This document shows, piece after piece, positions 21,004 to 49,195 of a DNA stretch of 60,787 nucleotides. Positions within the stretch are counted from its first letter, which is position 1; every line of letters begins with the position of its first letter. The translations under genes and the position numbers were made by a program. Source of the stretch: a virus; the IMG/VR virus record IMGVR_UViG_3300044823_000252, positions 1 through 60,787 of that record; one strand, written 5' to 3'. Under the pieces are notes generated by a model. It was not told the origin of the DNA and ran no database searches. It saw only the letters and a program-made list of their open reading frames with translations.

Positions 21004-23079
21004 ATGACTACACTGGTGTTTCGCAACGGAGTCACCGCGCCCCGCGAGGGCGCGGACGTCGTCCATGAGCAGATGTGGCGCGCGCACGCGTACCGCAAAA
21101 ACCTCGCGCTCATCGAGCGCGGTCGGCGGTGGGCCGAGCGCCTGGCGCGGTCGACCTGCAGCGCGGAGATGGAGGCAGCCGAAGCAAAAGTCGCCGGGAT
21201 CGCGGCGGCGTGCGAGTGGCTCGGCGCCGAGATCCGGGTCGGGCGCAAGGTCACCCGATCGCGCAGCGAGACGGCGTCCGCGCGCCTGCAGATCGCCGCC
21301 GCGCGCGCCGCGGGCAAACAGGCGCGCGAGCAACTCTACGCGGTGCGGGCGCGCTACGCGTCGCAGTGCAAGGAGTGCCGCAAGCTCAAGAGCGAGCAGA
21401 ACCCGTGCCCGCACGCCTCGGCGGAGGCGCGCGCGCTGCGCGACGCGATCGACACCATCGACACGATGGCTAACGAGATCGTCAAGAACGCCCGCCACCA
21501 CTCGGGTGTGTGGTGGGGCACGTACCTGATCGTCGAGCGCGCGCACCGCGCGAGCTGTGCGGCGCCGCTCTACGATAAAGACGGCGTCACGCCGCACGAC
21601 CCGGACTTGCCGCCACCGTGGGACGGCTCGGGGACCGTGGGCGTGCAGATCCAGTCGACTCGACCGCTGACGGTCGAGGGAGCGCTCGCGCAGAAGGACT
21701 CCAGGCTGCGGATCGGTGCCCCCCCGTGGCCCGAAGAGTGGCTCGCGAGCGCTACGCTCGCAGCGCGTCCCCCACGTCGAGAGGATAGCATCGTAGGGAG
21801 CGGTCGCGGCCGCCGTCCACCGGGGATCTTGCCAGGTCGTAAAGGTGAGCCGGACCAGCCTGCGCCGGCGACGCGACCCGACGGCACGCCAGCGCGCTGG
21901 GTGCGTGACCGTGCGGCGCGGCACGGCGAGCTCAGGTTGTGCGTAGACACCGACGAGCATCGCCGGCCGATCTGGGCGACATTCCGGCTCGACTACCACC
22001 GGCCGCTACCGGCCGGTGCGTCCATCACCTGGGCCGCCGTCCACCGGCGCGCGCGCGGGCCGCACAGTGAGTGGAGCCTCTGCCTGACGGTCAACACGCC
22101 GGATACCGTGACCGTTCCCCAGGTCCCGGACCGCCCGACCGTCGCCGTCGACGTGGGCTGGCGGTTGATAGACGGGGCGATCCGCGTCGCGGCTTGGCAC
22201 GACTCGAACGGGAAAAGCGGCGAGCTACGGCTGACCGTTGCCGACGTCCACGTGCTCCGCATGCACGCGGACGTGCGCAGCGAGCGCGACCGCGCGTTCG
22301 ACATCTGCAAGACGAACCTGAAGCGGTGGATCAATGTCTCTCCGGTCGCGACGGAGTGGATGCGGGACGCCGCGCGCGTGATGCACGCGTGGCGCCGCCC
22401 GGCCAAGCTGGTCCGCCTGCTCCGTCGCTGGGAGAGTGAGCGGCCGGACCGAGACGCCGCCGAGGACGCCGCGCTCCAGGCTGTCCGGGCGTGGGCGATG
22501 GGTGACTGGGCGCGGTGGGCCACCGAGGAAGCGTGTCGCGTGCGCGGGCTGCGACGCCGGCGCGACAAGTACCGCTGCTTCGCCGCGGAGCTCACGCGCG
22601 CGTACGGCACGATCGTGATCGAGCAGTTCGACCTGCGGGTGGTCGCCACCCGGAAAGCGACCGGGGCGGACGACGCCGAGAACGAGGTCGCGCGCAGCAA
22701 CCGCCAGCTCGCCGCCGTGAGCGAACTGCGCGACTGCCTGATATCGACCGCTCCGCGTCGCGGCACCCAGATCGCGGCCGTAGACGCCGCGTACACGACC
22801 AGCACGTGCCCGGCGTGTGGGCTCGTGGCCGACCGGGAGCCCGCCCTGCGGGTGCGCCTGCGCTGCACGTGTGGTCACGAGTGGGACCAGGACCGGGAGG
22901 GTGCGGCCCCGCTGCTGCTCCAGCGGTGGTGCGAGCGGCCCGGCGACGCGAAGATCGTGGCGGCCGCTCGCGACGACGGTAAGGATGCAGAAGACAAGGC
23001 GAAGAAGAGTGAACGGTGGGCGCGTGCGCGCCGGATGGGAGCCGCCAAGAAGGTCCGGGTGGCGAGCGCTCGAAAGTAG
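21004..23079 (+). CDS. Cas12-like type V CRISPR effector (phage-borne)
   Basis: 691 residues; AGGGAGA lies upstream of the ATG. The C-terminal half is a RuvC nuclease: motif I VAVDVGWR with Asp383, motif II IVIEQFDLR with Glu540, a zinc knuckle CPACG (602-606) plus CTC (621-623), then WDQDREGAA with Asp630 in the motif III position. All three carboxylates needed for cutting seem present. The N-terminal half is helical and basic (HAYRKNLALIERGRRW) with a possible second site (Cys122, Cys125, Cys135, His137) and a disordered linker near 260-300. Size and the VDVGWR...IRVAAW pattern recall V-U1/Cas12m more than TnpB (about 400) or Cas12a (about 1,300). The array begins 41 bases after the stop. 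No cas1, cas2 or cas4 is nearby. RNA-guided DNA targeting is inferred; the subtype is uncertain. Confidence 0.85.
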   Translation: MTTLVFRNGVTAPREGADVVHEQMWRAHAYRKNLALIERGRRWAERLARSTCSAEMEAAEAKVAGIAAACEWLGAEIRVGRKVTRSRSETASARLQIAAARAAGKQAREQLYAVRARYASQCKECRKLKSEQNPCPHASAEARALRDAIDTIDTMANEIVKNARHHSGVWWGTYLIVERAHRASCAAPLYDKDGVTPHDPDLPPPWDGSGTVGVQIQSTRPLTVEGALAQKDSRLRIGAPPWPEEWLASATLAARPPRREDSIVGSGRGRRPPGILPGRKGEPDQPAPATRPDGTPARWVRDRAARHGELRLCVDTDEHRRPIWATFRLDYHRPLPAGASITWAAVHRRARGPHSEWSLCLTVNTPDTVTVPQVPDRPTVAVDVGWRLIDGAIRVAAWHDSNGKSGELRLTVADVHVLRMHADVRSERDRAFDICKTNLKRWINVSPVATEWMRDAARVMHAWRRPAKLVRLLRRWESERPDRDAAEDAALQAVRAWAMGDWARWATEEACRVRGLRRRRDKYRCFAAELTRAYGTIVIEQFDLRVVATRKATGADDAENEVARSNRQLAAVSELRDCLISTAPRRGTQIAAVDAAYTTSTCPACGLVADREPALRVRLRCTCGHEWDQDREGAAPLLLQRWCERPGDAKIVAAARDDGKDAEDKAKKSERWARARRMGAAKKVRVASARK

Positions 23080-28696: not shown

Positions 28697-28756
28697 ATGA
28701 CGACCGATATCTCGGTCGCGAGCCGCGCTCGCGCTCGCAACCGGCAAGAGTGGTGA
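28697..28756 (+). CDS. Candidate 19-residue leader peptide
   Basis: An ATG at 28697 with GGGAGAG about 7 bases upstream encodes MTTDISVASRARARNRQEW. Its TGA shares bases with the primase-helicase start (TGATG), so ribosomes ending here could restart on the large gene. The start site is far better than that of the primase gene itself, suggesting translational coupling. Confidence 0.45.
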   Translation: MTTDISVASRARARNRQEW

Positions 28757-31700
28757 TGTCCGACGACGGCCACGAGCCGATGCCGCCCGACGAGTTCTGG
28801 AAGCTCGTGGCATCGCAGAAGGTCGAGGCCGGTGGTGGGGTGTCTCTGCCACCGTCCGATACCGATGGCGCTCCTTCGCCGCCGAACGATGGGAGCTCGG
28901 TCGGAGCCCCGCCGCCCGTACCGCCTCCCAAGACCGGAGACTCCTCGCTCGAGGAGCGCCTGCGCGCCGCCCAGGAGCGGGGACTGGCCGACAACCTGCG
29001 CCGCCAGCTCGCGTTCGTGGGCGCCGCGGAGGTGGTCTTCGAGTTCCAGGCGCTCGGCGTCCGGCGCTACCCGAACGACTCGTTCGACAAGTCGCGCGCG
29101 GCGCACGCGCGCGGGCCGGAGATGGCCGTCGCGCTCTGCGCCGAGGCCGACTCGTGGATCGCGCACGGCGTGTACATCATGCCGGCGCGGCTGCGGGCCG
29201 GGGTCGAGTCGCGGCACGCGGCGCCGGGGCACTGGTTCGACATCCCGAAGGGCGTCGGCACGACGGACTCGGACGTCGAGGCGCGCCTCATCCTCGCCGT
29301 CGACTTCGACGTCAAGCGGCCGAGCGCGATCTCGGCGACCGAGGAGGAGATGCAGCGGTCGGTACGCGTCGCACAGAACGCCTGGAGCTTCCTCGCCCAC
29401 CACCTCGGCGAGAGCTCGCTCGCGTACCTGCATTCGGGCAACGGCCGACAGATCCACATCGCGCTCGACGCGGTGCCGGTCAACGACCCGTCGAAGAACG
29501 CGTGCGCGGGCCTGCTCGTCGGCCTCGCGCACCTCTTCAACACGCCCGAGGTCACGGTCGACGAGAAGCTCTTCGACGCCAAGCGCATCCTGCCCGCGTG
29601 CGGGACCTTGAAGAAGAAGGGTGCGGCGGGCGTCGAGGACCGCCCGCACCGCCGGACCGCCATTGTCACTCCGGAGGTTGTGACGCGCGTCTCGCTGGAG
29701 AAGCTCGTCGAGCTGGCGCGTGTCATCTGGGAGGCGTCGGACGCCGCCGGCCGCGCGGCCATCGACAAGGCGTTCGGCGTCAAGCCGCAGCCGCAGGCGA
29801 CGAGCGTCGTCACCGGGATGCGCGACAACCCCGACTCGCCGTTCGCGCGGGCCAACGACGTCGAGCCGCAGCAGGTGGCCGACTGGCTCGGTCTCTACAA
29901 CCCGCGCGGCGAGGTCGTGTGCCCGGGATGCGGAGAGACGAGCGGCGTCGCGGTCTTGAACCGCGGGCTCAAGTGCCACCACAACAGGTGCAAGGACCGC
30001 GGGCGCGGCGGGTTCCGGACGAACATCGACCTCGTCGCCGAGGTGCAGGGGCTGTCTCCGAAGGAGGCCGTGATCGCGATCAGCGACCGGTTCGGCCTGG
30101 GGATCCCCACCTTTCACGAGGTGCCGCCGCCGGCCATCGCGGAGGCGGCGACGGAGGGCGAGCGCGCGGCCGCCGTGCAGCAGCAGCAGCAGGACTACGG
30201 GGCCGAGTTCCTGACGCCGCTCGACGAGCGGCTCACCCGGTCGGTCGCGCGCGCCGTTCGCCGCTGGATCGGCATCGAGAAACCAGTGCCGCTGCCATGG
30301 GACGAGCTCAAGGAGCACTTCGGCGGGGGCTTGTGGCCGGGGCTACACATCCTCTGCTCGGGCACCGGGGTCGGCAAGACCGCCGCGGTCCTCCAGATCT
30401 GCAAGCACGCCGCCGTAGAGGGCGTTCCGACGGCCTACGTGGGCCTCGAGATGGACGACCTGCAGTTCGACCTGCGCGTGGTCGCGGAGGAGGCGGAGCT
30501 CAGATGGAGCAACCTCTACACCGGGCAGACCAACAATGAGGCGCTCAAGCGCGCGGCCACGGTCGCTCTGGAACTAGCCGACAGGAAGCTCCCGCTGCAC
30601 CCGATCAACAGGAACCCGATGGGCTGGCCGGCGAGCAAGGTGCACGCGCTCGCCGCCGCGCTCCGGCAGAAGTACCCGGAGCCGCCCCCGTCCGAGACCA
30701 TGAACTCGGGCGGACCCGGGTCGAGGCCGATCCTCATCGTCCTCGACTACCTGCAGATCATCGGCCCCGAGGAGGGAGAGGACGGTAAGTACAAGACCCT
30801 CGACCTCCGAGAGCGCATCGGGCGCGCCGCCTACGCCCTGCGCGAGGTGGCGACGCACCACAACATCGCGATCCTCGTCGTCGCCTCGGTCGCGCGCGAC
30901 AAGTACGGGCTCTGGCCGATGGTGATGAGCGCCGACCTCCGGTGGGACTACGACAAGGATCGCCTGGTCAACAGGCGCGTCACGGTCCCCGACGTTCTCG
31001 TCGGCCTCGGTAAGGAGAGCGGGGAGATCGAGTACGGCGCCGACAGCGTGAGCGTCCTCTCGCGCGTGCCGGACACCTACGTCGACGGCCAGGGCGAGAG
31101 CGTCGTGTTCGTGACCGCCAAAGGTCGCGCGACGGGCGCGCGGTGGACCCCGATGCACTTCACTGGCTTCCGTTACGAGCCCGCCCGCGACGGCGGAGAC
31201 GCCGTCGTCGAGGCCCTCAGCAAGGCCGACAACGCGAAGGAGCAGAAGAGGCTCCAGAAGGAGGAGGGGAAGCGGCAGGCTGAGGCCGAGGCCGACCAGC
31301 GTCGAGCCGCCGCCGCGGACTCGAAGGAGCAGCAGCGAGTCCGAGACCGGGACGCGTGCCTGCGGGTCGTCACCCAGTGCCCAGGGATCGGTTCGCGTCA
31401 GCTCCGAGCGTCGATGGCCGCCGAGCTGGGTGAGTGTGGGAGGGAGCGGGCCGACGCCGCGATCACCTACTGTGAGAACGTATCCCACACCATCACCGTC
31501 AACCGGATCAACCCGAAGGACCTGAAGCACTACCCTTCGGGGCAGTACGCCCCACAACCTGACCCAGACGGTGGTGACTTGTCTACCGATCGGTTTATGT
31601 TGGACGGTCCAAAAAAATCCCCCATACCCCCTAGTGATGGCGCCACACGCGCCACACCGGGGGGGAGTGGCGGAAGTAGCTCCGCCACACCCGCCACACC

Positions 31701-32106
31701 CGCCACACGTGGTCTAACTGACGGTAACTATAGAGACGGAGGTGTGGCGGAGCCTCCGCCACACCTCGAAAAGCGATCCGCCACACCCGCCACACCTCGC
31801 CAGCCCACGGCGGACGAGCAGACCGATGCAGACTCAGTCGTCCTGTTCGACATGGACGAGTCCGAGTGGCGGACCGCCACGAAGGCCCTGGGGTGGTCCG
31901 AGGCGCGCTCAGGGAGGGCCAGGGCGCTGGCGAAGCACCGCCAGTCCAAGGCGCGCGCGGACGGGCAGGCGCTCCACCATGTCGAGCTCCGCGGAGATGA
32001 TCCCCGCGCGCTGGCTACGGAGTGGGGGTGGGACGACGATAGGATCAGGATCGCCATGCGGTTCAAGCCGGCGGCAAACGACCGAAAGGAAAACGACGAT
32101 GGTTGA
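28756..32106 (+). CDS. Primase-helicase (AEP-like primase plus DnaB-like ATPase)
   Basis: 1,116 residues from the ATG at 28756 (a GTG at 28750 is possible). An N-terminal linker leads to an archaeo-eukaryotic-type primase: ILAVDFDVKRP (about 181, metal-binding Asp pair), SGNGRQIHIAL (about 230) and ILPACGTLKKKG. A CHC2-like finger follows (CPGCGE about 388, then CHHNRCKDRG). The RecA-like helicase has Walker A GTGVGKTA (about 536), GLEMDD and Walker B LIVLDYLQI (about 660). A long Glu/Lys linker, an Ala-Thr-Pro repeat segment encoded by the iterons (about 962-1013) and a C-terminal helical domain finish it. It should prime and unwind DNA at the replication fork. Confidence 0.9.
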   Translation: MSDDGHEPMPPDEFWKLVASQKVEAGGGVSLPPSDTDGAPSPPNDGSSVGAPPPVPPPKTGDSSLEERLRAAQERGLADNLRRQLAFVGAAEVVFEFQALGVRRYPNDSFDKSRAAHARGPEMAVALCAEADSWIAHGVYIMPARLRAGVESRHAAPGHWFDIPKGVGTTDSDVEARLILAVDFDVKRPSAISATEEEMQRSVRVAQNAWSFLAHHLGESSLAYLHSGNGRQIHIALDAVPVNDPSKNACAGLLVGLAHLFNTPEVTVDEKLFDAKRILPACGTLKKKGAAGVEDRPHRRTAIVTPEVVTRVSLEKLVELARVIWEASDAAGRAAIDKAFGVKPQPQATSVVTGMRDNPDSPFARANDVEPQQVADWLGLYNPRGEVVCPGCGETSGVAVLNRGLKCHHNRCKDRGRGGFRTNIDLVAEVQGLSPKEAVIAISDRFGLGIPTFHEVPPPAIAEAATEGERAAAVQQQQQDYGAEFLTPLDERLTRSVARAVRRWIGIEKPVPLPWDELKEHFGGGLWPGLHILCSGTGVGKTAAVLQICKHAAVEGVPTAYVGLEMDDLQFDLRVVAEEAELRWSNLYTGQTNNEALKRAATVALELADRKLPLHPINRNPMGWPASKVHALAAALRQKYPEPPPSETMNSGGPGSRPILIVLDYLQIIGPEEGEDGKYKTLDLRERIGRAAYALREVATHHNIAILVVASVARDKYGLWPMVMSADLRWDYDKDRLVNRRVTVPDVLVGLGKESGEIEYGADSVSVLSRVPDTYVDGQGESVVFVTAKGRATGARWTPMHFTGFRYEPARDGGDAVVEALSKADNAKEQKRLQKEEGKRQAEAEADQRRAAAADSKEQQRVRDRDACLRVVTQCPGIGSRQLRASMAAELGECGRERADAAITYCENVSHTITVNRINPKDLKHYPSGQYAPQPDPDGGDLSTDRFMLDGPKKSPIPPSDGATRATPGGSGGSSSATPATPATRGLTDGNYRDGGVAEPPPHLEKRSATPATPRQPTADEQTDADSVVLFDMDESEWRTATKALGWSEARSGRARALAKHRQSKARADGQALHHVELRGDDPRALATEWGWDDDRIRIAMRFKPAANDRKENDDG
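31641..31795 (+). repeat. CGCCACAC iteron cluster (candidate replication origin)
   Basis: Eight direct CGCCACAC copies start at 31641, 31650, 31683, 31692, 31701, 31757, 31779 and 31788; several are spaced exactly 9 bases. One inverted copy (31742) pairs with the copy at 31757 in a 23-base palindrome (31742-31764) with 11-bp arms. The cluster surrounds an AT-richer segment (31709-31735) and follows another (31579-31617). It encodes an Ala-Thr-Pro linker. Iterons inside a replication gene are the layout of the lambda origin in gene O. Confidence 0.75.
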
Positions 32107-36939: not shown

Positions 36940-39774
36940 TCAACCGATCCCCTCGCCGTCCAACCAGTCGGCGAACGGCGCGTCGACCGGCTCGCCCGTC
37001 GGGACCTCGGCCCATTCGTCGGACGGCGCGTCGATGGCGTCGATCGTCCTCGCGAGCGCGTTCTCCTCCGCGGAGATCCCCATGGCGCGATCCTCTTCCG
37101 CGGCGTCGCGCTCGTCGTGAGCGCGAGTCGCCTCGCTCAGCGCCCGCTCCTCGAGCGCCTCCTGCTCCTCGCGGGCCGCCTTGCGCAGGAGGCGGCGCTC
37201 GAGGAGGCTCTGCCATAGCGCGTCGGACGCGAAGTCCGCCTTGATCTTCTCGGACCAGTGCCGGGGAGGCCAGGCGCCGTAGCGATCCTTGTAGATCGCG
37301 CTCGCGAAGCCAGGCTTGAACCCCTTGCTCTTGGCCATGACGACCTGCCGCCAGAAGAACGCCCACTTGAGCGCCTCGGGCTCGGTCTGCCGCTCGCGGA
37401 GCTCCCCGTCGCTCTCGCTGAGCGGCCGCTCCTGGCGGGGGATCTCCGCGCCGCAGTGCGGGCAGACCGTGCGCGACACGCCGCAGTACCCGCCGCACGC
37501 GGGGCACTTGCGCATCATCTCCTGACCGCCCGCCCGTTTCGGGCGGTCCTTGAGGGACCAGGCGACGTCCTCGAACGGGCAGCCGAGGCCGGGTCGGTCG
37601 AAGTTCCCCGCGTGGTCGAGCAGGAGTGGGATTATGCCGCACCACGGTCGCATCTCGCGCCCACACATCTGCCTCCACGCGGTCATGCTCATCGTCGGGC
37701 GAGCGCACACGACACACTTGATTTCCTGGATGTCGATCCCCTCGACGGCGACCAGGCAGTTTGTGACGACCTCGAGCCGCCCCGAGGCGAGGTCGCTGAG
37801 TATCCGCTCGCGATCGCCCTCCGGAGTGTTGCCGTCGAGGTGCGCTACGCGCACCCCGGCGCGCCCGAACCGCTCCGCGAGCGACAGCGAGTGCTCGACG
37901 TTGACCGCGAACACGATCGTGCGGCGCCTCTCGCCATCGACGAACTCCCCGGGCACGCGGACCCCCTTGTTGAAGACGGGGTGCAGGTGCGCTCGCTTCA
38001 GCCAGGTCTCGACGACGTTGCCCTCGAGCCGGTCGGCGCGCATCACCTGCGCGAGCTGGTCCTCGTCGAAGTCCGACCCGCTCTTGCGCACGCGCGACAG
38101 GTCAGCCGCCTCGCTGCCGGCGAAGACGTCGGGCGCGACGAGCCAGTCGGGGTGCTTGAGTAGCTCTGCGTACGTCGCGACCTGCACGATCTCCTCGAAG
38201 AGATCCCCGCCGAGCGGGCGACCGTCGAGCCGCACCGGCGTCGCGGTGAAGCCGAGGACGATGGGGTCCTCGTACGCAGAGAGGAGCTCCCTGTAACTGT
38301 CGGAGGCAGATCTATGACATTCATCAATTATTACAATAACTTGCTTGCCTAAAAACGGCCTGTCACGTCGCGCGAGCGTCGCGATGCTGCCGACCTGCAC
38401 GGACGCCGACGGGTCGTAACGTGCGTCGTTCCCGCGGATGACGCCCACGTGGGTGATCCCCTGGTTGGCGAGCTGGCGCACGGCCTGGTCCAGAATTTCC
38501 TTGCGGTGGGCCACGAAGAGCACTGGCAGCGTCGCTGACTTGATGATCGCCGCGAGCAGGACAGTCTTTCCACTGTTGTGCGTGACGGTGAAGTCGTCGA
38601 GTAGGTATCGTCCATCTCGATCGAGAGTGAAGCCGTAGAAACTTGCATCCTTCACACGTTTTACCGAGAATCCAGTCCGAAGCGGATTCTTCTTTTGTGT
38701 GCGAGCTGCGGCTCTCTTCCTTGTTACTTTGCACGGAACGACAGACGTTTCACCGGACACTGACACCCGCCAGTAGGTCCCTACCGCTCCGGTCTGACAT
38801 CCCTTCCGACACTTGGACACGTAGGCAGCTAGACCCAGGCTCCTAGCCAAAAATGCGACGTCACGAGATAGCGCCTCGGACTTTGAGATAAAGTCGAAGC
38901 CTTTGAGCGACATCGATCCGTCCGTATCGATGAGACCAGCCAGCAGTGCAGCACGATCCTTACGTGAGGCAACCTTGTACTGGTGTGGGATGAACTTCGA
39001 CCCACCATCAAGACCTTCGAGTCCAACCTGATCCAGTAGCAACTTGAGCCGATTCCGGCTGCCACCCCTTGGGCCGTTTGATTTGTTGGCCAGGTGGAGG
39101 ACGGTGTTGTCCACCCCCCCACGTTCATCTCGACGCACGCGCAAGCCGATCCGTTCGGCTTGAACCTCGATCGGGGTGGTTATTTCATGTTTGGTGCCTA
39201 TGGAGATCGACATGGAGCTGTTCCTGCTGCAGCCGTCTCCGAGGTAGAGGCCTAGCAGGTACGGATCGATCGGTAGGATCGCTCGACTTCTTGGGAAGTT
39301 GACACTGACGCGGAGTAGCTTGTGAATGTGCTTGCGCCACTTCGACCACGAGAGCCATTCGCGGACTGTGACGTCCACTAGTTCACCGTTTCGGTGAGGT
39401 TGCCCGTCTGCGTTCGTGCGCACGAGCGTCAGTACGTGGTCCTCGTTGACGATCCACGATTCACCCTTGACCGGGATGATGCGGTACATGCGCCCGAACC
39501 CACGGCAGAGAGCTAGAACTCTACGCGGTGCACTGTCTGGACCCATGAGGAGGTCGCCAACGCATACCTCCTCGATCGCGCGTAGCGATCCGTCGAACAT
39601 CATCACGCGCTGCCCTTTTGCGTGGCATCCGGTGGGGCTCACGCACAGGATTCGTTTCTTTCCCAGCAGCACCCTCGTGCGCACCTCCACGAGCGCGCGC
39701 GACTGGTAGGGGCGCAGCTTCTTGGGTGGCGCGCCCTGCGTGAGGGCGGTGGACTCAAAGAGCGGGAGCGTCAT
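36940..39774 (-). CDS. SF2 helicase with P-loop intein
   Basis: 944 codons; after intein removal about 593 residues. Motif I is interrupted (VSPTG | SGKT) by the intein at codons 50-400. Then VIIDECHRS (motif II, DECH), GFTATPVRL (III) and RQMCGREMRP (VI, QxxGRxxR) define a DEAD/H-type superfamily 2 ATPase. A zinc ribbon (CPACGGYCGV, CPHCG) and a long charged helical tail follow. It may unwind duplex DNA or RNA during replication or recombination. Confidence 0.9.
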   Translation of the reverse strand: MTLPLFESTALTQGAPPKKLRPYQSRALVEVRTRVLLGKKRILCVSPTGCHAKGQRVMMFDGSLRAIEEVCVGDLLMGPDSAPRRVLALCRGFGRMYRIIPVKGESWIVNEDHVLTLVRTNADGQPHRNGELVDVTVREWLSWSKWRKHIHKLLRVSVNFPRSRAILPIDPYLLGLYLGDGCSRNSSMSISIGTKHEITTPIEVQAERIGLRVRRDERGGVDNTVLHLANKSNGPRGGSRNRLKLLLDQVGLEGLDGGSKFIPHQYKVASRKDRAALLAGLIDTDGSMSLKGFDFISKSEALSRDVAFLARSLGLAAYVSKCRKGCQTGAVGTYWRVSVSGETSVVPCKVTRKRAAARTQKKNPLRTGFSVKRVKDASFYGFTLDRDGRYLLDDFTVTHNSGKTVLLAAIIKSATLPVLFVAHRKEILDQAVRQLANQGITHVGVIRGNDARYDPSASVQVGSIATLARRDRPFLGKQVIVIIDECHRSASDSYRELLSAYEDPIVLGFTATPVRLDGRPLGGDLFEEIVQVATYAELLKHPDWLVAPDVFAGSEAADLSRVRKSGSDFDEDQLAQVMRADRLEGNVVETWLKRAHLHPVFNKGVRVPGEFVDGERRRTIVFAVNVEHSLSLAERFGRAGVRVAHLDGNTPEGDRERILSDLASGRLEVVTNCLVAVEGIDIQEIKCVVCARPTMSMTAWRQMCGREMRPWCGIIPLLLDHAGNFDRPGLGCPFEDVAWSLKDRPKRAGGQEMMRKCPACGGYCGVSRTVCPHCGAEIPRQERPLSESDGELRERQTEPEALKWAFFWRQVVMAKSKGFKPGFASAIYKDRYGAWPPRHWSEKIKADFASDALWQSLLERRLLRKAAREEQEALEERALSEATRAHDERDAAEEDRAMGISAEENALARTIDAIDAPSDEWAEVPTGEPVDAPFADWLDGEGIG
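38575..39627 (-). other. Class 1 intein with LAGLIDADG endonuclease (351 codons)
   Basis: Begins with Cys (CHAKGQRVMM) and ends THN before the +1 Ser of SGKT. Splicing block B has VNEDHVL; block F (YGFTLD) has no Cys, so class 1 chemistry is expected. Endonuclease motifs LGLYLGDGC and LAGLIDTDGS are both present with their acidic residues, so homing activity is possible. Insertion exactly in the P-loop makes removal costly. Confidence 0.9.
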
Positions 39775-40962: not shown

Positions 40963-41636
40963 GGCGCGCGCTCTTGCTTGACACGGAGACGACTGGGATC
41001 GACCCATCGGTAGACAAGATCGTTGAGGTTGCAGTCTGCCTGTTCGACCTTGAGTTGGGCTGCCCGATCGTCAGCTACGCGTCACTGATCCAGGCAGCGA
41101 GTAATGCCGCCGAGTCGATCAACGGTATCTCCGCCGCTGCTTTGGCTGGTGCCCCGCACGGTATTGAGGTGTGGCGTTCCGTGGCCGAGCTGGCGTCTCA
41201 AGCCGACGTCGTCGCCGCGCACAACGCGGAGTTCGACCGATCGTTCGTGCGTGCTGCTGGTATCGAGTCGGTCGCGGGTCGTGACTGGGTCTGTACGATG
41301 AGCGATCTTGACTGGGGCGGCAGTAGGAAGCTTGTGGAGATCGCTCTGAACCACGGCGTCGGCGTCGCGAGCATCCACCGCGCGGCAGCCGACGTCGACA
41401 TCATGGCGCGCTTGTTCGCGCGCGTGCGTGAGCGTGGCGGGGACCTTCCCGCGCTGTTCCGACGAGCGGCGCGCCCGAAAGCGCTCTTCTACGCGCTGGT
41501 CTCGTACGAGAACCGGCAGATCGCTAAGGCCCACGGGTTCGGGTGGGATGAGGCGAAGCACGGCAAGAACTGGTTCCGGTACATGCCGCCGGAGGACACG
41601 GAGGCGCTGCCGTTCCAGGTGCGGAGGGTCGCCTGA
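40959..41636 (+). CDS. DEDDh 3'-5' exonuclease
   Basis: 225 residues from a GTG at 40959. ExoI LLDTETTGID, ExoII VVAAHNAEFDRSF and ExoIII HRAAADVDIMARLF supply the Asp/Glu/His set of DnaQ-type nucleases. The C-terminal 45 residues (KAHGFGWDEAKHGKNWFRYM) form an added domain common in phage exonucleases. It may proofread or trim DNA ends during recombination. Confidence 0.9.
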   Translation: MRRALLLDTETTGIDPSVDKIVEVAVCLFDLELGCPIVSYASLIQAASNAAESINGISAAALAGAPHGIEVWRSVAELASQADVVAAHNAEFDRSFVRAAGIESVAGRDWVCTMSDLDWGGSRKLVEIALNHGVGVASIHRAAADVDIMARLFARVRERGGDLPALFRRAARPKALFYALVSYENRQIAKAHGFGWDEAKHGKNWFRYMPPEDTEALPFQVRRVA

Positions 41637-41848
41637 TGGCCGTCGCTGGAGGTGTGGCGATTCCCCTAATGGATCGAGTCACCTTCGACAACGTGACCGA
41701 GATCGACCTCGACGGTCACGTAGACGCACGCGGGGTTCAGTACGTAGGCAATGCCGCGAAGCAGGCGGACGGCACGTGGCGGTGCCTCGCGGTCGTGGGT
41801 GGCGCCCTTTGCGTCGTGGAAGTCCGTATTAGGCCGGAGGCTGTATGA
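41636..41848 (+). CDS. Small hypothetical protein
   Basis: 70 residues; ATG overlaps the exonuclease stop. Short beta strands (VTFDNVTEIDLDGHV; WRCLAVVGGALCVVEVRI) suggest a small beta-barrel. It lies between two nucleases. Function unknown. Confidence 0.6.
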   Translation: MAVAGGVAIPLMDRVTFDNVTEIDLDGHVDARGVQYVGNAAKQADGTWRCLAVVGGALCVVEVRIRPEAV

Positions 41849-42888
41849 CGCTCCTCATCCTCGAGACAAAGACTTCCGGAGAGGACATAACGCCAGGATC
41901 CAGCTACTGGCGTCGGATCAGGATGGACCCGCAGATCGGTGTCTACCTGCGCGCGGCGCAGCAGAAGGGGCTCGACCCCGCCGCCATCGGGTACGACGTC
42001 CTGGGCAAGGTCGCTCTGCGGCCGCTGAAGGCTACCCCACTCGAGTCGCGCAAGTACACCCAGCCGACCAAGAAGGAGCCGACGCCGCGCCTCTACGCCA
42101 ACCAGCGCGAGCGCGACGAGACGCCTGAGGAGTACGGCGAGCGGTGTCTGAAGGCTATCGCGGCGGAGCCCGACGCGTACTACCAGCGCGCGCTGCCGGT
42201 GCGCCTGTTCCAGGAGCAGCACGACGGCGCGGTCGACGTCTGGCAGACGGCGCAGACGATGCGCGAGGCGCACCGGCTGAACGTGTTCCCGCGAAACCCC
42301 GACTCGTGCTTCAACTGGAGCCGGGCGTGCGACTTCCTGCCCGCGTGCTGCGGGGACGTGCCGCTCGACGATCCGCTCCTATTCCGGCGGGAGGACAAGG
42401 AGCACGAGGAGCTCGAGGACATCTTCGAGACCGACCGCGTCGTGCTCACGCAGTCGAGCATGCGTACGTTCCGCGCGTGCCCGCGGCGCTACCAGATCCG
42501 CTACATCATGCACTTGCGGCCGGTCATCCGATCCGAGGCGCTACGGACCGGGTCGAGCGTGCATCGGGCCGTCGAGGCACTGCGCAAGGGTAAGTCGCTC
42601 GACGAGGCCCTGCTCGCGCTCGACCACGAGGACCCGTACGACTACCAGCGCGAGCGGGCGATGATTGTCGGGTACGTCGCGCGCTGGGGAGACGCCACAC
42701 GCGGCATCGTCGCGGTGGAGTCGCAGTTCGAGGTCGACCTGGTCAACCCGGAGACCGGGGCGGCGTCGCGCACGTTCCGGCTGGCCGGCAAGATGGACGC
42801 GATCTTCGACGGAGACGTGTGTGAATTTCTCGGTGCTGCTGGGCAGCCTGCGGCGGGTTCGATCCCCGCCACCGGGACGGAGGTGTAG
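41845..42888 (+). CDS. Circularly permuted PD-(D/E)XK nuclease (Cas4/AddB-like)
   Basis: 347 residues. Residues 1-193 match the C-terminal half of phage RecB/Cas4-type nucleases: LILETKTSGED (Glu7, Lys9), YWRRIRMDPQIGVY, SRKYT, ETPEEY, FPRNPDSC. Residues 199-325 match the N-terminal half: LTQSSMRTFRACPRRYQ, TGSSVHRAVEA, GYVARW, FRLAGKMDAI (Asp318). So the halves are swapped and the termini fall between the catalytic Asp and Glu-x-Lys. Cys155, 162, 168 and 212 could form an iron-sulphur staple. The last 20 residues look unrelated. Activity is uncertain. Confidence 0.8.
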   Translation: MTLLILETKTSGEDITPGSSYWRRIRMDPQIGVYLRAAQQKGLDPAAIGYDVLGKVALRPLKATPLESRKYTQPTKKEPTPRLYANQRERDETPEEYGERCLKAIAAEPDAYYQRALPVRLFQEQHDGAVDVWQTAQTMREAHRLNVFPRNPDSCFNWSRACDFLPACCGDVPLDDPLLFRREDKEHEELEDIFETDRVVLTQSSMRTFRACPRRYQIRYIMHLRPVIRSEALRTGSSVHRAVEALRKGKSLDEALLALDHEDPYDYQRERAMIVGYVARWGDATRGIVAVESQFEVDLVNPETGAASRTFRLAGKMDAIFDGDVCEFLGAAGQPAAGSIPATGTEV

Positions 42889-42890
42889 AG

Positions 42891-44912
42891 ATGGCAGTGG
42901 ACATGGGTCGCATCGTCAAAGGGAAGGTCGCGCGGCCGCCGCGCGTGGTCCTCTACGGGTTCGAGGGTGTCGGTAAGGCGCAACCTGTTGACGCGATGGT
43001 TCTGACGCCGACAGGTTTTATCGAGATGGGATCTCTGGAAGTCGACGACCAGGTTATCGGTGTTGACGGCAAGCCAGTACGTGTCGTCGGCGTGTTCCCG
43101 CAAGGGAAGAAGAAGATCTTTCGTGTCGTGATGAAGGATGGCGCGGAGACAGAGTGCTGCGAGGAGCACTTGTGGGAGACGACAACGGTAACGGACTCTC
43201 TTCATGGAAAACCATCGAAGGTCCGTTCGCTCGCTGAGATCAGGGAGAAGTTTTTGTACCGGAAAGGTGCGGATGGGGATCCTAGTAACGCGAACGACGT
43301 ACCGAATCACCGCATTCCAGTGGCGATGCCGGTGGAGTTCACCAGCGCGGGGCCCCTTTCGCTGAATCCGTACCTTCTCGGTCTGCTCCTTGGGGATGGG
43401 GTTCTTGGCGGCCATGCGAATAGTGTGGCTTTTTCAAAGCCGGAGTCAGACGTGATGGACCGGTTGGCTGCGGCGCTTCCTGAATCGGATACGGTTACCC
43501 GGTTCGATGACGGGAGCGGTCTGCGGATCCGAAGGAAGAAGCAGTCGAACCATAGGGACCAGTCGGACACATCGAAAGCGCTGTCTGCACTCGGCCTGCG
43601 AGGCTTGTCGTCGCTGGAGAAGTTCATCCCGGACGCCTACTTATTCGCGAGCGTAGAGGACAGGATCAATCTACTGCGCGGCATCTGCGACACGGACGGG
43701 CACGTCATACGGTCGGGACAGCGGGTCGAGATATCCACCTCTTCCCCGAGACTGAGGGACGGGATCCTGTTCTTGATCAGGTCGCTTGGTGGTGTCATTA
43801 CGTTGACCCAGAGAACCCCCGCGTACATGTACAACGGAGAGCGTCGGTTCGGATCGGTGTCGTGGCGCATGCTGGCGGCATTCCCGCACGGACTCTGCCC
43901 GGTCTCAAGCGAGAAGCACTTGGCCAAGTGGAGGTCCGACCAAACGCCACACTATCAGACCATCGTCGAGGTGGAGGAGGTCGGCGAGAAGGAGTGTCGG
44001 TGCATTAAGATCGACGCGGAAGACGGCCTGTACCTCACGGATGACTTCATCGTCACGCACAACACCACGTGGGCTGCAGGGGCGCCGAACGTGTTCTTCC
44101 TCGACGCCAACAGGGGCAGCTCCAAGCTCGACGTCGAGCGCGTCGAGATCGAGTCGTGGGACGACGCGTTCGGGTGGCTCGAGGCTATCGAGGCCGGTCA
44201 CATCAAGTGCGACAACGTCGCGTTCGACGTGCTCTCGGACTTCGAGAACATGAGTCACGTGAAACTATTCCCAGGCAGCACGATCTCAAAGTACGATGGC
44301 GGCTACGGCAAGGGGGACGACGTGGCGCTGAAGGAGTGGCGCTGGCTGCTCGCTCAGGTCGAGCGCGTGTGGCTGCGCGGCAAGGGCATCATCTTCGTGG
44401 CCCACGCTCAGGTGAAGAAGTTTGAGGACCCGACTGGTCCGGGCTATGAGCGGTTTGAACTCGCGTGCAGGAAGAACATCGCCGCCCTACTCAAGGGGTG
44501 GAGCGACTACGTGTTCTTCGCGCGCGAGAATGTGACGGTCGCCACGGTGGAGAAGGGCAAACCGGCCAAGGTCTCGACCACCGGCGAGCGGTGGGTCTAC
44601 ACCAAGCGCCTGCCGGCCTACGACGCGAAGGCGCGCGGCACGGCGCTCTTCCCGGACAAGCTACCTCTGTCGTGGGACGAGTTCGCGCGAGCGGTCAAGG
44701 AGGACGACACGCGCGGCGATCAGATGAGGGGTGAGCTCGACGCGATGCTCACTGAGATCGGCGACAAGGCGTTCGAGAAGACCGTGCGCGACTGGGTCAA
44801 GCAGTACCCCGCCGGCCTGGTCGACGCGTTCAACCGCGTGCAGATCCGTCTCAACGCGAAGCAGGAGGTCGCTGACGCGGACAAGTCCGCGTCCGCTACC
44901 GCCACCGCGTGA
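42891..44912 (+). CDS. Sak4-like RecA-family ATPase with P-loop intein
   Basis: 673 codons, 311 residues after splicing. The Walker A motif FEGVGK | TT is interrupted by an intein. The extein continues TTWAAGAPNVFFLDANRGS, NVAFDVLSDFENM (Walker B region) and GKGIIFVAHAQVK. These fit the phage Sak4/RAD51-like annealing ATPases, which work with an SSB. The next gene is a plausible SSB and the previous one an exonuclease-type nuclease, as in phage single-strand annealing modules. Confidence 0.85.
   Translation: MAVDMGRIVKGKVARPPRVVLYGFEGVGKAQPVDAMVLTPTGFIEMGSLEVDDQVIGVDGKPVRVVGVFPQGKKKIFRVVMKDGAETECCEEHLWETTTVTDSLHGKPSKVRSLAEIREKFLYRKGADGDPSNANDVPNHRIPVAMPVEFTSAGPLSLNPYLLGLLLGDGVLGGHANSVAFSKPESDVMDRLAAALPESDTVTRFDDGSGLRIRRKKQSNHRDQSDTSKALSALGLRGLSSLEKFIPDAYLFASVEDRINLLRGICDTDGHVIRSGQRVEISTSSPRLRDGILFLIRSLGGVITLTQRTPAYMYNGERRFGSVSWRMLAAFPHGLCPVSSEKHLAKWRSDQTPHYQTIVEVEEVGEKECRCIKIDAEDGLYLTDDFIVTHNTTWAAGAPNVFFLDANRGSSKLDVERVEIESWDDAFGWLEAIEAGHIKCDNVAFDVLSDFENMSHVKLFPGSTISKYDGGYGKGDDVALKEWRWLLAQVERVWLRGKGIIFVAHAQVKKFEDPTGPGYERFELACRKNIAALLKGWSDYVFFARENVTVATVEKGKPAKVSTTGERWVYTKRLPAYDAKARGTALFPDKLPLSWDEFARAVKEDDTRGDQMRGELDAMLTEIGDKAFEKTVRDWVKQYPAGLVDAFNRVQIRLNAKQEVADADKSASATATA
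42978..44063 (+). other. Class-3-type intein with DOD endonuclease (362 codons)
   Basis: Starts with Ala (AQPVDAMVLT), not Cys or Ser, and ends IVTHN before a +1 Thr. Block B has EEHLW with Trp two after the His, block F has CRCIKID, and block G has the Thr of VTHN; together these give the Trp-Cys-Thr set that defines class 3 inteins, which use an internal Cys as the first nucleophile. Endonuclease blocks LGLLLGDGV and RGICDTDGH are present. Confidence 0.8.
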
Positions 44913-45493: not shown

Positions 45494-45786
45494 TGCCCAG
45501 GCGCGCGAGTAGGGTCGTCGTCGCCGATCTCGACGACGCCGACCTCCTTGAGCGCGTGCTCGCGCGCACCGACTTGGACCCGTACGAGGCGGGCGTCTTC
45601 GCGGAGATGCTCGACAGGCTGCGGGAGCGCGCCGAGGAGTACGGCGACGGCGCGTACGGCCTGACCGACAGGCAGCGCGAGTGGGCTGAGCGAGCGCTCG
45701 CGCGAGTGAAGCGGAAGCTGACCGGGGCGGAGTTCGTCGAGGTGGTCCGGACGACCATCGGTAGAGATCTGAGGTTACGGACTTGA
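45493..45786 (+). CDS. Helical protein with LTDRQREWAERA motif
   Basis: 97 residues. Helices VADLDDADLLERVLARTDLD and AEMLDRLRERAEEY, then LTDRQREWAERALARVK, shared with the gene at 7426-7833. The pattern looks like a small helical adaptor seen near phage replication genes. The TTGA junction links it to the Dam gene. Function unknown. Confidence 0.65.
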   Translation: MPRRASRVVVADLDDADLLERVLARTDLDPYEAGVFAEMLDRLRERAEEYGDGAYGLTDRQREWAERALARVKRKLTGAEFVEVVRTTIGRDLRLRT

Positions 45787-46625
45787 ACCAACCGACCACC
45801 GATATTGACGAGACAGCCGTCCAGGCTGCGCCGTTCTTGAAAAGCGCAGGGGGGAAGCGCTCGCTCCTGCCCGAGATCCGCGAGCACGTACCTGCGTCGT
45901 TCGGGCGGTACTTCGAGCCGTTCGTCGGTGGTGGTGCCGTCTTCTTCGATCTCCACGCCGTCGGAAGGGCCGACCGTGCCTACCTTGGTGACGCCAACAT
46001 CCACTGGATAATGGCGTACGAGGCCGTCCGCGACGATGTCGACGACCTCATCACCGCGCTCTTGGCTCACGCCGTCAAGCACTCGGCGGAGCACTACTAC
46101 GCTGTGCGCGAGCAGTCGCCGACGTCGAGACTCGCCATAGCGGCGCGGGCGATCTACCTGAACAAGACGTGTTTCAACGGACTTCACCGCGTCAACAAAG
46201 CTGGCAAGTTCAACGTCCCGATCGGCCGGTACGCGAACCCGACGATCTGCGACGAGGCGAACCTGCGCGCCTGCTCGGTCGCGCTGCAGAGCGTGGAGCT
46301 CGCGCGCGGCGACTTCGCGTCGGTGATGGCGCACGCTCGGGCGGGCGACTTCGTCTACTTCGACTGCCCGTACGTGCCGGTGAGCGCGAGCAGTCACTTC
46401 ACCGGGTACACGTCAGGGGGGTTCGACTGGACCGACCAGGAGCGGCTCGCGTCCTGCGCGCGCCGACTCAAGAAGCAAGGCGTGTGCGTACTGCTCTCCA
46501 ACGCCGACCATCTGAGCGTACGCAGACTCTACAATGGCTTCGAGATGCAGACCGTGAAGGCGCGCCGCAACATCAACAGCAAGGCCGGCAAGCGCGGGGT
46601 GGTCGGCGAGCTGCTCATCTGGTGA
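45783..46625 (+). CDS. D12-class DNA adenine methyltransferase (Dam-like)
   Basis: 280 residues from a TTG at 45783. FLKSAGGKRSLL and EPFVGGGAVFF form the SAM-binding site, YLNKTCFNGLHRVN is the Dam target-recognition helix region, and VYFDCPYVP (Asp194-Tyr197) is the catalytic loop. The usual DPPY reads DCPY, an uncommon change that may alter activity. It probably methylates adenine to shield phage DNA. LLSNADH and the C-terminal INSKAGKRGVVGE match the family. Confidence 0.9.
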   Translation: MNQPTTDIDETAVQAAPFLKSAGGKRSLLPEIREHVPASFGRYFEPFVGGGAVFFDLHAVGRADRAYLGDANIHWIMAYEAVRDDVDDLITALLAHAVKHSAEHYYAVREQSPTSRLAIAARAIYLNKTCFNGLHRVNKAGKFNVPIGRYANPTICDEANLRACSVALQSVELARGDFASVMAHARAGDFVYFDCPYVPVSASSHFTGYTSGGFDWTDQERLASCARRLKKQGVCVLLSNADHLSVRRLYNGFEMQTVKARRNINSKAGKRGVVGELLIW

Positions 46626-48301: not shown

Positions 48302-49195
48302 ATGCCGAAAGAATCGAGAGACGCGCTCAATGCGAAGGGTAAGACCGATGTCTACTACTTCGACCCGACCGACGTGGTCCTGGTCGAGAACAAGGCTTCC
48401 GCGCTCTACGACGAGCGGGTGGAGAACGACTTCAAGGAGTCGCTCGTCGTCAACATGATGTACCAGCCGGAGCCCGACGGGCCGCCGCAGGGCGTCCTCA
48501 AGGTACTCCTCGGCCGGCGCAACGCGGAGACTGGCAAGGTCGAGATCATCGACGGCAGGCAACGCACCAAAGCCTGCCGCGAGGCGAACCGTCGGCTCAA
48601 GAAACAGGGAGCGGAGCTACTTCGTCTGCCGGTGCTGCTCAAGCGCGCGAACGACGTGCGGTCGATGGCGATGCTTATCAGCTCCAACGAGCACACGACG
48701 GAAGACTCGCCGCTCAAGAAGGCCCACAAGGCGCAACGCTACATCGACCTTGGGCGCGACGAGTCGGAGGTGGGGGCTCTGCTTGGCCTCTCGCGGCAGT
48801 CGGTCAAGAGTCTACTGTCCTTGCTCGATGCACCCGCCTCCGTCAGAAACGCCGTCGAGATGGGCAAGATCACCGCGCGCGACGGCTACAAACTCGCACG
48901 CCTTGCTCCGGATGAGGCCAAGGTGAAGGTCGCGGAGCTACTCGAGCACGCGCCGCGAACGCCCGGCAAGAAACGGTCGCCTAACGCGAAGCGCGCGCGG
49001 GAGATCCTCGGCGGCGGCGAGCAGAAACTAGCGCCGGATCCCACCAACAGTCATACGACCAAGAAGGGAGAGGACGCGGTCGCGGAGTCCATCGCCGTGT
49101 GGATCGAGCGGACGTGGAACGGCGACGAGAACTGGGACGGGTCGCCGAAGGATATTCCTCAACGGATCCGCGCCGGGGAGTGGCGAAACAAATGA
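48302..49195 (+). CDS. ParB-like protein
   Basis: 297 residues. VEIIDGRQRTKACREANRR matches the ParB/Srx box with the arginine that contacts nucleotide; SSNEHTTEDSPLKKAHKA follows, then the HTH VGALLGLSRQSVKSLLSL. Phage ParB-like proteins may bind specific DNA sites in partition or act as nucleases. There is no ParA gene in this window. A basic linker (APRTPGKKRSPNAKRAR) and an acidic tail complete it. Confidence 0.85.
   Translation: MPKESRDALNAKGKTDVYYFDPTDVVLVENKASALYDERVENDFKESLVVNMMYQPEPDGPPQGVLKVLLGRRNAETGKVEIIDGRQRTKACREANRRLKKQGAELLRLPVLLKRANDVRSMAMLISSNEHTTEDSPLKKAHKAQRYIDLGRDESEVGALLGLSRQSVKSLLSLLDAPASVRNAVEMGKITARDGYKLARLAPDEAKVKVAELLEHAPRTPGKKRSPNAKRAREILGGGEQKLAPDPTNSHTTKKGEDAVAESIAVWIERTWNGDENWDGSPKDIPQRIRAGEWRNK

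What the first reader, a model, noticed from the sequence alone, without database searches (positions are those of the whole stretch)
41845..42888. Circularly permuted PD-(D/E)XK nuclease
The gene starts with the ExK half (LILETKTSGED) and ends with the half that normally precedes it (LTQSSMRTF to GKMDAI), so the order is swapped and the new termini fall between the catalytic Asp318 and Glu7/Lys9. Typical formation is tandem duplication followed by loss of the outer halves. Four cysteines that could form an iron-sulphur staple are split across both halves. A working enzyme would be a striking natural permutation.
Basis: partly seen in the sequence, partly recalled or inferred. Interest (0 to 1): 0.75.

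Follow-up and report, generated by a model that had tools for sequence, protein, structure and literature searches.

The report
Phage DNA nuclease with rotated gene
In this soil-phage contig an ordinary kind of DNA-cutting enzyme (a RecB/Cas4-like exonuclease) is made with its front and back halves swapped yet keeps every active-site residue, and related phages carry the same enzyme in all three possible rotations, so evolution appears to have re-cut this protein's ends more than once without breaking it.

Summary
ORF 41845-42888 (347 aa) encodes the C-terminal half of a RecB/Cas4-type PD-(D/E)XK nuclease first and its N-terminal half second. A profile of normal-order relatives matches both halves, in swapped order, at 1e-18 and 1e-17. 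It is not an assembly error: five other contigs (82-93% identity) share the order, and dN/dS in the body is about 0.1-0.3. All catalytic residues and the four staple cysteines are invariant. AlphaFold gives a compact model (pTM 0.72), except for a disordered, unconserved tail.

Unexpectedly, a second, larger class (39 sequences, including the sequenced isolates Tunturi_1 and Tunturi_2) is permuted at another point. Calling the three blocks A-B-C, normal relatives read A-B-C, that class B-C-A (model pTM 0.88), and this window C-A-B: all three rotations of one family. Nearly every copy sits directly upstream of the annealase gene sak4, so the nuclease is probably the end-resecting partner of a phage recombination pair.

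Two independent permutations are favoured: the window's class is sister to a B-C-ordered protein at 98/93. The AU test is only borderline. Origin by tandem duplication and trimming fits, but no intermediate was found. Activity is untested.

The parts
41845..42888 (+). Circularly permuted RecB/Cas4-like PD-(D/E)XK nuclease gene, block order C-A-B (347 aa plus stop)
41845..42414 (+). Block C (residues 1-190), normally the C-terminal half: E7-x-K9, Q30xxxY34, Cys155/162/168, ends in the natural C-terminus HEEL
   Evidence: profile match E 1.5e-18 to positions 137-303; residues invariant
42415..42441 (+). Linker of about 9 residues joining the natural C-terminus (HEEL) to the natural N-terminus (VLTQSSMRTF)
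   Evidence: same position and similar length in both permuted classes; open frame, dN/dS 0.08-0.78 over residues 178-200
42442..42585 (+). Block A (residues 200-247), normally the N-terminus: LTQSSMRTFRAC with staple Cys212, and GSSVH with His240
42586..42816 (+). Block B (residues 248-324), normally the middle: E292, strand GKMD with catalytic Asp318, then the new C-terminus
42817..42885 (+). Unconstrained C-terminal tail read through the intergenic stretch
   Evidence: dN/dS 0.3-1.8 and in-frame indels; residues 332-347 pLDDT below 50
42852..42870 (+). Hairpin GGCGGGTTCGATCCCCGCC resembling a tRNA T-arm, present in every member of this class; role unknown
   Evidence: no tRNA called, folding not above shuffles
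42891..44912 (+). sak4-like ssDNA-annealing ATPase gene with an intein in the Walker A motif; conserved partner directly downstream
41636..41848 (+). Small upstream gene (70 aa, unknown) whose stop overlaps the nuclease start (ATGA)

Best explanation
The gene encodes a genuine, naturally circularly permuted RecB/Cas4-type PD-(D/E)XK exonuclease, translated as one polypeptide from the ATG at 41845. Its natural N- and C-termini are joined by a linker of about 9 residues, and new termini were opened in the loop of the catalytic beta-hairpin, between the strand bearing Asp318 and the strand bearing Glu7/Lys9. The folded protein should be nearly the same as in normal-order relatives: the two strands pair side by side as in the normal hairpin, now as the first and last strands of the chain, and rebuild the D...(D/E)xK metal site with His240, Gln30 and Tyr34. 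The Fe-S staple (Cys212 + Cys155/162/168) would hold the old N- and C-terminal regions next to each other, which is why joining them costs little (inference). It probably resects phage DNA ends so that the neighbouring Sak4 annealase can pair single strands, as in phage exonuclease/annealase pairs such as lambda Red (role inferred from gene pairing and family). Shown: order, conservation, selection, residue conservation, predicted fold, sak4 pairing. Inferred: activity, polarity, cluster, and origin by tandem duplication then trimming.
For: Swapped matches to normal-order profiles. Six contigs with the same order. Body dN/dS about 0.08-0.31 across blocks C, A and B. Catalytic H, E, D, (D/E), K, Q, Y and four Cys kept in every sequence of all orders that covers them. 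AlphaFold pLDDT 77.8, pTM 0.72 for the window protein; 92.2 and 0.88 for the other permuted class. Foldseek of that model ranks the RecB-family nucleases Exo5, Cas4 SSO0001, RecE, MGME1 and AddB near the top, weakly, as expected for an order-dependent aligner. Only one PDDEXK_1 match per record. sak4 directly downstream in nearly every locus. The second class (B-C-A) shares the same C-to-N junction.
Against: No biochemistry. Foldseek of the window model against PDB gave no match below E 0.4. This class is known from only four distinct sequences, all from metagenomic contigs. No duplicated intermediate was found.
Confidence: 0.83

Rival explanations
1. Domain-swapped or oligomeric nuclease: the active site is completed between two chains, block B of one protomer pairing with block C of another, rather than within one chain.
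For: In the permuted order the two catalytic strands sit at the chain ends, so exchange between protomers would be easy (inference).
Against: The single-chain AlphaFold model is compact with pTM 0.72; the other permuted class keeps both strands adjacent in one chain with pTM 0.88. Multimers were not modelled.
Confidence: 0.08
2. Degenerate, inactive relic: a rearranged gene fragment next to sak4 on its way to loss.
For: The tail is unconstrained; Foldseek support in PDB is weak.
Against: Body dN/dS 0.08-0.31, all catalytic residues invariant and an intact frame in six contigs.
Confidence: 0.04
3. Not a permutation but an RNA- or DNA-level arrangement, such as a circular message or trans-splicing, that restores the normal order.
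For: A tRNA T-arm-like hairpin lies at the 3' end of this class.
Against: The frame runs unbroken through the C-to-N linker with a start and stop like ordinary genes; no intron or other RNA family at the gene; the other permuted class lacks the hairpin and models as an intact fold.
Confidence: 0.02
4. Chimeric contig or misassembly.
For: The source is metagenomic.
Against: Same order in six contigs, and a permuted relative in two sequenced phage isolates.
Confidence: 0.01

Closest known systems
PHROG 1218 phage exonuclease (normal order), e.g. mycobacteriophage 8UZL/FF47/Muddy and L012/L088/L089/L093
   Same: Same family, same catalytic and Cys residues, same sak4 neighbour
   Different: Normal block order A-B-C, versus C-A-B here
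Tunturiibacter phage Tunturi_1/Tunturi_2 'exonuclease' and 37 environmental relatives
   Same: Circularly permuted, same natural C-to-N junction, same residues, sak4 downstream
   Different: Termini lie after the His helix (order B-C-A), leaving the catalytic hairpin intact; annotated only as exonuclease, and no protein permutation is mentioned in the main text of the isolate paper (PMC11924767)
Cas4 / AddB nuclease domain / Exo5 (Fe-S RecB-family exonucleases)
   Same: RecB-type residues plus one N-terminal and three C-terminal Cys in Cas4 and AddB (PMC3466216); among the best structural hits
   Different: Normal chain order; cellular rather than phage recombination proteins
Circularly permuted DNA methyltransferases, Type I S subunits, cpRAS GTPases
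   Same: Natural circular permutations of enzymes or DNA-binding proteins (PMC3874165, PMC1829167, PMC2430557)
   Different: Unrelated folds

Membership tests
PD-(D/E)XK nuclease, RecB-type (PDDEXK_1, PF12705) | Profile match above the curated cut-off | tested here: met
   53.6 bits against cut-off 22, residues 201-321; the other half matches normal-order relatives at 1.5e-18
PD-(D/E)XK nuclease, RecB-type (PDDEXK_1, PF12705) | Catalytic set H, D, (D/E)xK, QxxxY | tested here: met
   H240, D318, E7, K9, Q30, Y34 conserved in all orders
PD-(D/E)XK nuclease, RecB-type (PDDEXK_1, PF12705) | Chain order: D strand before (D/E)xK strand | tested here: not met
   E7/K9 precede D318 by about 310 residues; it is a circularly permuted variant
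PD-(D/E)XK nuclease, RecB-type (PDDEXK_1, PF12705) | Metal-dependent nuclease activity | not testable with these tools
   needs purified protein
Fe-S 'staple' nucleases (Cas4/AddB/Exo5) | One Cys near the natural N-terminus and three near the natural C-terminus | tested here: met
   Cys212 + Cys155/162/168, invariant in 48/48 sequences; pattern per PMC3466216
Fe-S 'staple' nucleases (Cas4/AddB/Exo5) | Bound 4Fe-4S cluster | not testable with these tools
   zinc is possible instead, as in the DUF3799 structure discussed in PMC3466216
Circular permutation | Both segments homologous to a normal-order relative, in swapped order, in one frame | tested here: met
Circular permutation | Same three-dimensional fold as the unpermuted relative | tested here: inconclusive
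   Fairly confident compact model, but Foldseek is order-dependent and no coordinates were at hand for an order-free superposition
Permutation by tandem duplication | Duplicated or partly trimmed intermediates | tested here: not met
   none among the loci fetched; no leftover halves outside the genes

The most novel reading that the evidence does not exclude
One family of phage recombination nucleases has been circularly permuted at least twice, independently, at two different points, so that all three rotations of its three blocks exist in living lineages. This is tolerated because the Fe-S staple ties the natural termini together; one of the permutations cuts the catalytic hairpin itself.
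Probability: 0.55. Interest if true: 0.75.

Novelty: new variant of a known kind. Interest (0 to 1): 0.66.

Why it matters
Natural circular permutation of a whole catalytic domain is uncommon enough that single cases are reported, and cuts inside an active-site hairpin should be hard to survive. A family showing all three rotations next to the same partner gene gives a natural experiment on how permutations arise and what structure (here a metal-cysteine staple joining the ends) makes them cheap. It also means ordinary domain searches miss or half-annotate these phage nucleases: Pfam covers only one half of this one. In the open-access papers searched I found no report of a circularly permuted PD-(D/E)XK nuclease, but the 2012 superfamily survey in Nucleic Acids Research was not held, so priority is not established.

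Tried and rejected
tRNA, tmRNA or intron explanation of the tail: ARAGORN finds no tRNA, Rfam nothing above its curated threshold, folding energies no better than shuffles, and the hairpin pattern occurs only in this class. Integrase att site: no tyrosine integrase match in the window record; three related records have one; not pursued. Plasmid relatives: none. Bacterial genome relatives: one MAG contig, by its length and match apparently the same record as a viral contig already found. Solved-structure sequence search with the permuted profile: no match. A common origin for the two permuted classes could not be firmly excluded: with the first trees AU p 0.37 and 0.28; with the added normal-order relatives 0.23, or 0.029 after removing a long branch. 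A tree of the neighbouring Sak4 proteins does not resolve it. A degenerate copy of the ExK strand in the tail (GDxR(E/D)(F/W)(L/I)) looked like a fossil of duplication but rests on eye comparison only. Two calls were mistyped queries and returned errors (20, 23); 89 and 90 likewise.

Full report
WHAT IS THERE. The ORF at 41845-42888 (+) encodes 347 residues. It opens with MTLLILETKTSGED, contains MDPQIGVY (the QxxxY motif) and C155/C162/C168, reaches HEELED, and only then shows VLTQSSMRTFRACPRRYQIRY, GSSVH and, near the end, GKMDAI. Pfam PDDEXK_1 (PF12705) matches only residues 201-321, to profile positions 2-132 of 247; PHROG 1218 'exonuclease' matches in two stretches. A profile made from six normal-order relatives matches residues 3-172 with its positions 137-303 (E 1.5e-18) and residues 197-320 with its positions 2-129 (E 1e-17). 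So both halves are homologous to one normal protein and their order is swapped.

IT IS NOT AN ARTEFACT. Five other IMG/VR contigs hold the same gene in the same order at 82-93% identity. The upstream genes differ between the lineages whose upstream DNA was seen, while the start codon stays in the same place, just before the (D/E)xK strand. Pairwise dN/dS is 0.08-0.16 in block C, 0.09-0.28 in A and 0.13-0.31 in B; only the last ~23 codons are unconstrained (0.3-1.8). No other PDDEXK_1 protein was found in any of the six records; the records may be incomplete.

RELATIVES IN THREE ORDERS. Searches by protein and alignment brought in three kinds of relative. Write the normal protein as blocks A (N-terminal Cys, His motif), B (middle, GKMD strand) and C ((D/E)xK strand to the Cys cluster). 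Normal order A-B-C: L012, L088, L089, L093, mycobacteriophage 8UZL (L009), L029, L030, L010. Order B-C-A ('class T'): 39 sequences from environmental contigs and from the sequenced isolates Tunturi_1 and Tunturi_2. Order C-A-B ('class W'): the window and its five kin. All 39 class-T proteins show the swapped two-part match. Both permuted classes share the same junction, natural C-terminus HxEL, about 10 residues, natural N-terminus (V/I)LTxS, but were opened at different points: class T after the His helix, class W inside the catalytic hairpin. All three rotations of one three-block protein therefore exist.

THE ENZYME LOOKS INTACT. Across 48 sequences of all orders, Cys212, His240, E292, G315, D318, K9, Q30, Y34, R115, C155, C162 and C168 (window numbering) are invariant wherever the sequence covers them, and E7 is always D or E. 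AlphaFold2 with an alignment of unmodified window and locus proteins gives pLDDT 77.8 and pTM 0.72 for the window protein, with residues 67-87 and the tail 332-347 below 50. A class-T protein gives pLDDT 92.2 and pTM 0.88. Foldseek aligns in chain order, so it should do badly on permuted chains, and it does: no PDB match passes E 0.001 for either model. Still, the best PDB matches of the class-T model are mostly RecB-family nucleases: Exo5, Cas4 SSO0001, RecE, MGME1, AddB, RecB. The window model's list begins with AddB (E 0.44) and includes RecE at rank 4, with unrelated proteins between. Among predicted viral structures the eight matches below E 0.001 include six named PD-(D/E)XK nucleases and two unnamed proteins, best E 6.7e-12. 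I had no coordinates and could not measure the active-site distances.

WHAT IT PROBABLY DOES. A Sak4-like gene follows the nuclease on the same strand in every locus tested but one, whatever the block order, usually within a few tens of bases; the exception, L010, has a gene annotated 'AAA domain' there. Sak4 of phage HK620 is a RecA-like protein with single-strand annealing activity stimulated by its SSB (PMC5928155). Exonuclease plus annealase is the usual phage recombination pair (lambda Red alpha/beta; established knowledge). Cas4 SSO0001, which shares the four-Cys and RecB motifs, is a 5'-3' ssDNA exonuclease, and Cas4 family proteins bind an iron-sulphur cluster (PMC3466216). The best reading is an end-resecting nuclease for Sak4; polarity and cluster type are inferred.

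WHY THE PERMUTATION IS TOLERATED (INFERENCE). In Cas4 and AddB one Cys near the N-terminus and three near the C-terminus bind the cluster (PMC3466216). The same four are kept here on either side of the new linker. The cluster would hold the old termini together in space, so fusing them needs only a short linker; new ends can then open in surface loops.

ORIGIN. Duplication followed by trimming (PMC3320104) fits the shared junction and the two different trims, but no duplicated or half-trimmed gene was found, and no leftover halves lie in the flanking DNA fetched. With the last relatives added, class W is sister to L094 (98/96 and 98/93 in two trees). L094's visible part reads B-C and runs out of frame into sak4 with no A block after C, so it is normal order or at least not C-A fused; its first block lies beyond the contig end. 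That favours two independent permutations. The AU test of a single permuted clade gives p 0.37, 0.28, 0.23 and 0.029 in successive data sets, so one origin is not firmly excluded.

NOVELTY. Circular permutation is known in DNA methyltransferases, Type I specificity subunits and GTPases (PMC3874165, PMC1829167, PMC2430557). Five searches of the open-access library found no permuted PD-(D/E)XK nuclease; the 2005 superfamily paper PMC1189080 has no occurrence of 'permut'; the 2012 survey was not held; the main text of the Tunturi isolate paper does not discuss it. I rate it a new variant of a known kind.

Noticed in passing
42852-42870; also L002, L003-L006: Every class-W gene ends in a hairpin of tRNA T-arm form (stem, GGGTTCGANTCCC-like loop) just before the sak4 ribosome site, with one compensatory pair change (L005). 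No tRNA is called and folding is not above shuffles. Unexplained.
   Followed up: partly
42891-44912: The sak4 gene carries an intein in Walker A (GVGK|AQPVDAMV...FIVTHN|TTWAAG) that begins with Ala; by eye it has class-3 (W-C-T) features. The L002 copy lacks it, and L003 reads on without it at that point.
   Followed up: partly
36940-39774 (-): DEAD/ResIII helicase with a LAGLIDADG intein in Walker A (SPTG|CHAKGQ...THN|SGK).
   Followed up: no
class-T loci, e.g. L069, L043, L040, L067; also L094: The nuclease C-terminal tails run into the start of sak4 in another frame (40-115 nt in several loci); these low-complexity tails are probably by-products of the overlap.
   Followed up: partly
L053 (5086-5743), L064 (5002-5681): About 650 extra bases lie between the class-T nuclease and sak4, unlike most relatives; contents not examined.
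   Followed up: no
L082 3310-4353: A class-T gene interrupted by a frame change relative to its near twin L062; broken gene or sequencing error.
   Followed up: no
28750-32106, 48302-49195, 45783-46625, 21004-23079: DnaB-like helicase (1118 aa, unusually long), ParB-like protein, DNA methyltransferase and a transposase domain in the window.
   Followed up: no
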